Positions 11,772 through 13,189 of a DNA stretch of 43,734 nucleotides are shown one piece after another. The DNA is from an uncultured Clostridia bacterium (GTDB lineage Bacteria > Bacillota > Clostridia > Christensenellales > UBA1242). Both the position numbers and the translations under genes were made by a program. How positions within the stretch are numbered: the first letter of the stretch is position 1; each line of letters starts with the position of its first letter. The DNA lies in assembly GCA_947624105.1 (NCBI GenBank), contig CANQIX010000006.1, positions 1 to 43,734 on the forward strand, read 5' to 3'. The notes under the pieces were generated by a model. That model made no database searches and had not been told where the DNA came from. It was given only the letters and a program-made list of their open reading frames with translations.

Positions 11772-13189
11772 ATGGAAGAACAAGTTACAAAACGCTCATT
11801 CGACTTAAAGACTTTTCTGAAGTGGGCATTCATCGTTGGAGCAATCGGCTTTGGAATCTACCTTTTGGTAGTAATCATCGTTGCTTGTGTTGCGCCAAAT
11901 CATATCAATGTAGTTATTTCTAACACACTTTTTTCTGATTTTGCCGAAACGTTGGCTTACGCCAGTGTGCCAAACGCATATAACGGCGCTTATGGGATAA
12001 GAACCTTCTATCCACCATTATCATTTTTGATTTTCTGGCCTTTCACCCTGTTCTGCAGCGGACAACTTAAAGCATATGTGGGGGGGGGGAGATGTCGCTT
12101 GCCCAATTATCAGCGACACCAGGGTTCATCTGCGCTTACCTTCTCTACTTTGCAATTAACTTAGCAATAATTTTGTATGTTGTTGCAAGAATGTCGAAAC
12201 TCAAAGGAATAAGCCTATTCTACTTACTTTCACTTGTTGTGTTCTGTGGGCCACTTCTTTTTGAATTTGTAAGAGCAAACAACACTCTGTCAACCTGTGT
12301 TTTTGCTTTGTTGTTCTTCTATTTCAGCGGAAGAAAAGACGAAGAAACCAAACTTTGGAGACGTGAACTTTCGTATGTTTTCTTGGCGCTGGCAATTTGT
12401 ATGAAGATATATCCAGCCGTTTTAATCCTCTTCCTTATTTGGAGAGAAAAGGGTTGGAACAAACTTTGGGCTGTGCTTCAAACAATTGCATTTGCCCTTG
12501 CATTTGTCTTTTTACCATTCTTGCTTACAGAGGGCGGATTTAGCAATATCAGTGAAATTTGGAAAAACTTCCGCGGATTTTCTGGCGCAAGTGTAAGCGC
12601 TGCTAAGTGGAGCGACAATCTCGACTCTCTTGGCGGACAGGCAGGTGATTATCTTGCCGAATCTGTAAAATGGGGCACAAACATCTCTATCGAAACGATA
12701 ACTTTCTATATATGCTACGTTTTAAGTATTATGTTTGGTGGCGTAAACCTCAGCGGTATGCAGCACATTTTAAGTATGATTCTTCGTTTCAGTTTGCTGA
12801 TTTGTGCAGTTGTTTTGCCTTGTATCAGTTTCAAATCAAAGAAATATAAAGAATTTGTTGCTCTTGCTGTTGGAACATATATGTTGTTCCCAGGCGTTTG
12901 CAATGGTTACTGCTTAACCCTTATGATTATTCCTTTTGTCATCACAATCCTCGATTGGAACAATATGTCAAAGGGCAACAAGATTTTCTACTCGATATTC
13001 TATGGACTTCTTATGTTTGCACCTCTATACACATACGGAATATACGTGCCATCTGCAATCGCAACCCTTGTGATTGTTACAAAATCGATTGTAGATATAA
13101 TCATTGACGATGTAAAAACTTTCAAGCAGATGCACCAAGAGAAAAAGGCAAAAAAAGTTAACGAATCATCAACACAAAAAGAAGACTAA
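11772..13189 (+). pseudogene. GT87/DUF2029-like integral membrane glycosyltransferase interrupted by frameshift at a G10 tract (ORFs 11772-12164 and 12092-13189)
   Basis: N-terminal ORF has SDFAETL...TFYPPLSFLIFWPF typical of GT87-like proteins; second ORF continues with TM helices immediately after the tract; +1 G or -2 G joins the frames. Confidence 0.8.
12080..12089 (+). repeat. Homopolymeric G10 tract at the frameshift point
   Basis: read directly: catatgtGGGGGGGGGGagatgtcg. Confidence 0.9.

What the first reader, a model, noticed from the sequence alone, without database searches (positions are those of the whole stretch)
11772..13189. G10 tract splits a GT87/DUF2029-like glycosyltransferase: candidate phase-variable (or slippage-controlled) locus
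Seen: ten consecutive G at 12080-12089. ORF 11772-12164 carries the N-terminus (TM1, SDFAETL, YPPL) and goes out of frame at the tract; ORF 12092-13189 carries the remaining TM helices in another frame. Adding one G or removing two joins them as AYVGG(G)EMSLAQ. Long G runs are rare in this AT-rich window. Established: poly-G slippage drives ON/OFF switching of surface glycan genes, best known in Campylobacter and Neisseria. Inference: this is an OFF-state contingency gene, or one expressed by transcriptional slippage.
Basis: partly seen in the sequence, partly recalled or inferred. Interest (0 to 1): 0.82.

Follow-up and report, generated by a model that had tools for sequence, protein, structure and literature searches.

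The report
Poly-G switch in a sugar-transferase gene
A run of ten G bases breaks a membrane sugar-transferase gene in an uncultured Clostridia bacterium; a near-identical strain has nine, and related species carry many such runs in and before surface-protein genes, so this is most likely one random on/off switch, caught off, in a group not known for this kind of switching.

Summary
In detail: ten G at 12080-12089, the only G>=10 run in the 0.96-Mb genome, split one GT87-type glycosyltransferase gene into a 130-aa and a 365-aa frame. Both halves align without gaps to one 473-aa homologue (84% and 80% identity). A public protein from an independent 1851-base contig (P0029) matches the window letter for letter over 109 residues across the tract, but only if the tract there is nine G. 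So tract length differs between strains; both alleles seen are out of frame.

The wider evidence is stronger than the single locus. In this genus 51 of 61 genomes carry G>=9 tracts, up to 35 per genome. Of 109 tracts read, 47 sit between good -35 and -10 hexamers (3.4 expected by shuffling), mostly before signal-peptide or lipoprotein genes. Most others lie in coding sequence, usually near the 5' end, with G on the coding strand. Orthologous tracts differ in length and frame between species.

Best explanation: translational poly-G phase variation, in the OFF state. Not shown: an ON allele in this species, or reversibility. Orthologues lack the tract, so it is newly acquired. Mechanism known; the lineage and the scale appear new.

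The parts
11772..12164 (+). Upstream frame: N-terminal third of a GT87-type membrane glycosyltransferase (TM1, FSDFAETL motif with the candidate catalytic Asp, YPPL), then out-of-frame residues after the tract
   Evidence: 84% identical to P0002 over 102 aa without gaps; alignment A1
12080..12089 (+). G10 tract, the proposed slippage switch; 9 G in an independent strain (P0029)
12092..13189 (+). Downstream frame: the remaining about 365 residues of the same glycosyltransferase, lacking TM1 and the candidate catalytic Asp
   Evidence: PF09594, E 5.6e-11; 80% to P0002, no gaps
11761..11766 (+). AAGGAG ribosome-binding site 5 nt before the upstream ATG
   Evidence: sequence
11720..11748 (+). Promoter-like site TTGCAA-17-TAAAAT ahead of the gene (no G/C tract in its spacer)
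   Evidence: consensus match only
13197..13223 (+). Probable terminator after the stop codon: CAGTTGCAAA/TTTGCAACTG palindrome followed by T7
   Evidence: read; one search lists the same palindrome on the - strand
10197..10204 (-). Second tract: G8 on the coding strand, inside the neighbouring GT2 gene, in frame here; codes for residues absent from 119 aligned homologues
9464..10831 (-). Neighbouring GT2 glycosyltransferase (455 aa, intact) carrying the G8 tract
   Evidence: (PF13641, E 1.1e-22)

Best explanation
The gene is a polyprenyl-phosphate-sugar-dependent membrane glycosyltransferase of the GT87/GT-C kind that probably adds a sugar to a cell-envelope glycan. Its reading frame runs through a poly-G tract about 100 codons in. 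During replication the tract gains or loses a G by strand slippage; only every third length is in frame, so cells switch at random between making the full enzyme (ON) and making a roughly 130-residue fragment cut off after the first membrane segments (OFF). The assembled genome (10 G) and the strain behind P0029 (9 G) are both OFF. The tract is a recent gain in this species, within a genus that uses poly-G/C tracts widely: in -35/-10 promoter spacers and in coding sequence of surface lipoproteins, acyltransferases and glycosyltransferases. Shown: the tract, the split frame, the length difference between strains, the genus-wide layout. Inferred: replication slippage as cause, an ON state, reversibility, and the enzyme's substrate.
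For: Tract far beyond chance. P0029, from another contig and with a separate 30-nt deletion, equals the window's coding sequence over 109 residues only with 9 G. Both halves 80-84% conserved with no other lesion. The downstream half alone lacks TM1 and the motif holding the candidate catalytic Asp. Genus: 51/61 genomes with G>=9, up to 35 each; 47/109 tracts lie in a -35/-10 spacer scoring >=10/12 against 3.4 expected; 49/53 non-promoter tracts next to a long open frame have G on the coding strand, 37 of 53 within 70 aa of the start, 30 of 53 out of frame. Same position, different length across species: L122 11 G out of frame vs L138 9 G in frame (73% identical proteins); promoter of L101 9 vs L118 10 (93% identical genes); five paralogues in G065 with 9, 9, 10, 10, 12. 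In the adjacent GT2 gene another tract adds residues absent from 119 homologues.
Against: No in-frame allele of this species found. Orthologues at 50-80% identity have ordinary codons at the site and, G142 apart, intact frames, so the tract is not a conserved feature of this gene. The tract lies about 102 codons in, deeper than most coding tracts of the genus. All data are metagenome assemblies; no reads were available. MutS is present in 60 of 61 genomes, so there is no general repair defect that would raise slippage.
Confidence: 0.74

Rival explanations
1. Decaying pseudogene: the gene was inactivated by a frameshift at a G-rich spot, and the tract now drifts in length without an ON state that matters.
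For: Both alleles seen are out of frame. Orthologues lack the tract. The gene is rare in the genus, 4 of 112 genomes, and one of those (G142) is also broken, by one missing base at the same codon with no tract. P0029 also carries a 30-nt deletion at TM1.
Against: No other stop or frameshift in either half at 80-84% identity to P0002; the P0029 deletion keeps the frame; long G runs are strongly enriched in surface genes of this genus, so a chance origin is less likely.
Confidence: 0.15
2. Assembly or sequencing artefact: the true tract is in frame and fixed, and the assembled lengths are homopolymer errors.
For: MAG data only; G homopolymers of about 10 are error-prone; two assemblies disagree (9 vs 10).
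Against: The tract lies 12 kb inside a 43.7-kb contig; P0029 is a distinct strain by its deletion; neither length is in frame, so both would have to be wrong; genus tracts have non-random promoter and coding contexts that errors would not give.
Confidence: 0.06
3. Recoding: the full protein is made from the 10-G gene by -1 ribosomal frameshifting on G-GGG-GGG or by transcriptional slippage on the G run.
For: The tract contains a slippery G heptamer in the upstream frame, and a one-base backward slip would reach the downstream frame.
Against: RNA after the tract folds no better than shuffles (z 0.27); the 9-G strain would need a different shift; orthologues use a normal continuous frame.
Confidence: 0.05

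Closest known systems
Campylobacter poly-G translational phase variation (phasome; PMC6321876)
   Same: Poly-G tracts of mostly 9-10 inside surface-modification genes, frameshift ON/OFF; tracts of eight or more shown there to switch expression of some genes; a comparable number per genome.
   Different: Campylobacter is dominated by coding tracts; in this genus promoter-spacer tracts are about as common. Different class (Clostridia); no switching experiment here.
Bordetella fim2/fim3 C-stretch promoters (PMC1891110)
   Same: Poly-C in the promoter whose length alters transcription; resembles the architecture of 47 of 109 tracts in the genus.
   Different: The GT87 tract itself is coding, not promoter; the promoters here look like plain TTGACA/TATAAT with the tract in the spacer.
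Gardnerella homopolymer-tract phase variation (PMC11287997)
   Same: A host-associated Gram-positive with many G/C tracts in or upstream of surface genes; lengths 9 and 10 seen among colonies.
   Different: Actinobacteria, cultured; not related to this lineage.
PimE / GT87 GT-C mannosyltransferase (PDB 9dm5, 9dm7; PMC12041525)
   Same: Pfam GT87 match of the window gene; best fold match of the family model; catalytic Asp at the tip of the first juxtamembrane helix corresponds in place to the near-invariant Asp of FSDFAETL.
   Different: 13-14% identity; substrate not known; I know of no phase variation of PimE.
Clostridioides difficile invertible promoters (reviewed in PMC11868660)
   Same: Phase variation in a Clostridia species.
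   Different: Site-specific DNA inversion, not repeat slippage.

Membership tests
Simple-sequence-repeat translational phase variation (poly-G contingency locus) | Homopolymer longer than chance in the coding region | tested here: met
   G10, 0.08 expected per genome, only one
Simple-sequence-repeat translational phase variation (poly-G contingency locus) | Change in tract length switches the frame of an otherwise intact gene | tested here: met
   Two halves of one gene align gap-free to intact P0002
Simple-sequence-repeat translational phase variation (poly-G contingency locus) | Tract length differs between near-identical strains | tested here: met
   10 G in window, 9 G implied by P0029; one other strain only
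Simple-sequence-repeat translational phase variation (poly-G contingency locus) | In-frame (ON) allele exists in the same species | tested here: inconclusive
   None among the homologues listed; few strains sampled
Simple-sequence-repeat translational phase variation (poly-G contingency locus) | Reversible switching within a clone | not testable with these tools
   Needs reads or culture
Glycosyltransferase family 87 (GT-C) | Match to Pfam GT87 above the curated cut-off | tested here: met
   PF09594: 43.1 bits for the downstream half, 35.4 for P0002, cut-off 25
Glycosyltransferase family 87 (GT-C) | GT-C fold | tested here: met
   AF2 model of P0002 pLDDT 80, pTM 0.81; best PDB matches PimE E 1.9e-4, ALG6 third; no sequence-level PDB match
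Glycosyltransferase family 87 (GT-C) | Catalytic Asp after TM1 | tested here: inconclusive
   D56 of FSDFAETL is at least 90% conserved and starts a short helix after TM1 in the model; equivalence to PimE D58 inferred
Promoter-spacer phase variation (fim3/porA type) | Homopolymer between -35 and -10 of the gene | tested here: not met
   Best hexamer score at this tract 8/12, as in shuffles; met for three other tracts of the genome (L008, L010, L014)

The most novel reading that the evidence does not exclude
A whole genus of small-genome, uncultured Clostridia (and probably other families of its order) runs a large slippage-based phase-variation system: poly-G/C tracts in the -35/-10 spacers and the 5' coding regions of surface lipoproteins and envelope-modifying enzymes. 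New tracts are still being gained in conserved glycosyltransferases such as the two neighbours in this window.
Probability: 0.75. Interest if true: 0.62.

Novelty: new member of a known kind. Interest (0 to 1): 0.52.

Why it matters
Repeat-slippage phase variation is best known from Proteobacteria and a few others; in Clostridia the phase variation discussed in the review read here is by DNA inversion. If this holds, a species-rich, uncultured lineage diversifies its surface by tract slippage. Single-genome MAG annotations would then miscall many of its surface genes as pseudogenes or silent, and the switching could be read directly from existing metagenome reads.

Tried and rejected
Programmed frameshifting: no unusual RNA structure after the tract. 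General mismatch-repair loss as the cause of tracts: MutS_V found in 60 of 61 genomes, including this one. A promoter inside the tract region: hexamer score 8/12, not above shuffles. The downstream ORF as a gene of its own: its ATG directly follows the G run, there is no separate ribosome-binding site at usable spacing, and it lacks TM1 and the catalytic motif. P0019/P0023 (one 41,983-base contig) as a second poly-G split: broken around residue 222 instead, DNA not available, not pursued. A PDB sequence search with the family profile found nothing.

Full report
Observation. The window has ten consecutive G at 12080-12089. This is the only G>=10 run in the 958,864-base genome to which the window belongs. 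A first-order Markov model of the window expects 0.0035 runs of G/C>=10 per window and 0.08 per genome. The genome holds nine distinct G/C>=8 tracts, against 1.3 expected from dinucleotide shuffles of the window (scaled) or 2.1 from the Markov model.

One gene. The two frames are halves of a single gene. Against P0002, a 473-aa protein from another contig, the upstream half aligns over 102 residues at 84% and the downstream half over 365 residues at 80%, both without gaps. Pfam calls GT87 on the downstream half (E 5.6e-11) and on P0002. The AlphaFold2 model of P0002 (pLDDT 80, pTM 0.81) best matches PimE among solved structures (E 1.9e-4 and 5.3e-4), then yeast ALG6, both GT-C enzymes. In PimE the catalytic base is D58 at the tip of the first juxtamembrane helix (PMC12041525). 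The family's near-invariant FSDFAETL puts an Asp (D56) at the start of a short helix after TM1 in the model. That this is the catalytic Asp is inference. It lies in the upstream half, so neither half alone should work.

Length difference between strains. A search with the upstream half found P0029, 118 aa, on an independent 1851-base contig. It lacks ten residues near TM1, through a 30-nt deletion between CATTC repeats at 11797 and 11827, so it is another strain. Its last 109 residues equal the window's coding sequence letter for letter if the tract is 9 G, and for no other length tried from 7 to 13. So 9 G and 10 G both exist, and both are out of frame. No full-length copy at 90% identity or more was found; the ON state in this species is therefore inferred.

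Orthologues. Within 112 genomes of the genus only four carry the gene, this one included. G154 and G066 are intact and have ordinary codons at the site. G142 is broken at the same codon by a missing base (GCGGGAAAC in G154, GCGGAAAC in G142) without any tract. P0002 and other homologues read Y-V-A-G-D/E or similar there. The G tract is therefore a recent gain in this species. A pseudogene origin stays the main rival.

Genus-wide system. In 61 genomes of the genus, 51 have G/C>=9 tracts, up to 35 in a 1.1-Mb genome; counts in other families of the order are patchy, from 0 to 40. I read 100 regions around such tracts, which with the own-genome tracts gave 109 distinct tracts. Of these, 47 lie wholly inside the spacer between hexamers matching TTGACA and TATAAT at 10 or more of 12 positions, against 3.4 in flank shuffles. 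Spacers run 15-20 nt, mostly 16-17. Genes behind these promoters have a hydrophobic N-terminal segment in 32 of 41 cases against 12 of 39 window ORFs (Fisher p 4e-5), and 13 have a lipobox-like motif against none. Of 53 non-promoter tracts next to an open frame of 100 aa or more, 49 have G on the coding strand, 37 lie within 70 aa of the start, and 30 are out of frame. These assignments are from simple scripts, and a few will be wrong.

Same place, different length. Related genes in different species carry the tract at the same place with other lengths: L122 (11 G, out of frame) and L138 (9 G, in frame) are 73% identical; the promoters of L101 (9) and L118 (10) precede genes 93% identical; G065 has five lipoprotein paralogues with 9, 9, 10, 10 and 12 G, some in and some out of frame. 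This is what slippage under selection for switching predicts.

Own genome. Besides this locus: three promoter-spacer tracts (L008; L010, a lipoprotein; L014, a TMEM164-like membrane protein), two acyltransferase_3 genes (L002 out of frame, L009 in frame), a lipoprotein with the tract five codons after its ATG (L013, in frame), the C-terminus of a membrane protein (L012), and the neighbouring GT2 gene in the window. In that GT2 gene the tract codes for residues absent from 119 aligned homologues: a second newly gained tract in a glycosyltransferase, 1.9 kb away.

Mechanism and rivals. Replication slippage at the tract, switching a surface glycan enzyme ON and OFF, fits best. Mismatch repair looks ordinary (MutS_V in 60 of 61 genomes). 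Recoding is unlikely: no RNA structure beyond chance after the tract, and the 9-G strain would need another shift. An assembly error would have to affect both assemblies.

Comparison with the known. Poly-G frameshift switching with tracts of mostly 9-10 is the Campylobacter pattern (PMC6321876); poly-C promoter switching is the Bordetella fim pattern (PMC1891110); Gardnerella is a Gram-positive precedent (PMC11287997). A 2025 review, searched here for Clostridia, discusses their phase variation as DNA inversion (PMC11868660). My searches found no report of slippage phase variation in this lineage, but the library is partial. The kind is known; the lineage and the scale appear new.

Noticed in passing
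10197-10204 (-): G8 tract in the adjacent GT2 gene codes for residues (AGGG) absent from 119 aligned homologues: a tract-bearing insertion, in frame in this assembly.
   Followed up: yes
L157/L048 (genome G142): The GT87 orthologue in another species is broken by one missing base at the very codon where the window has its G10 tract, without any tract (GCGGGAAAC in G154, GCGGAAAC in G142). Coincidence, error, or recurrent loss at one site is not explained.
   Followed up: partly
L008 and L010 (G000:C10:4883, G000:C12:438): Two promoters in the own genome share TTGACT-A-C(8 or 9)-GCGAGA-TATAAT with different C-tract lengths; one precedes a lipoprotein gene.
   Followed up: partly
L014 (G000:C40:1782): TTGACA-(17, ending in G8)-TAAAAT promoter before a TMEM164-family membrane protein; the ORF just upstream looks like a choloylglycine (bile-salt) hydrolase by eye (MCTAATY start), which would fit a gut habitat.
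   Followed up: no
P0019 and P0023 (one 41,983-base contig): Another homologue of the gene is split, around residue 222 rather than at the tract position.
   Followed up: no
G049, G055, G091, G129 (other families of the order): Several other families have 18-40 G/C>=9 tracts per genome, so the phenomenon may reach well beyond this genus.
   Followed up: no
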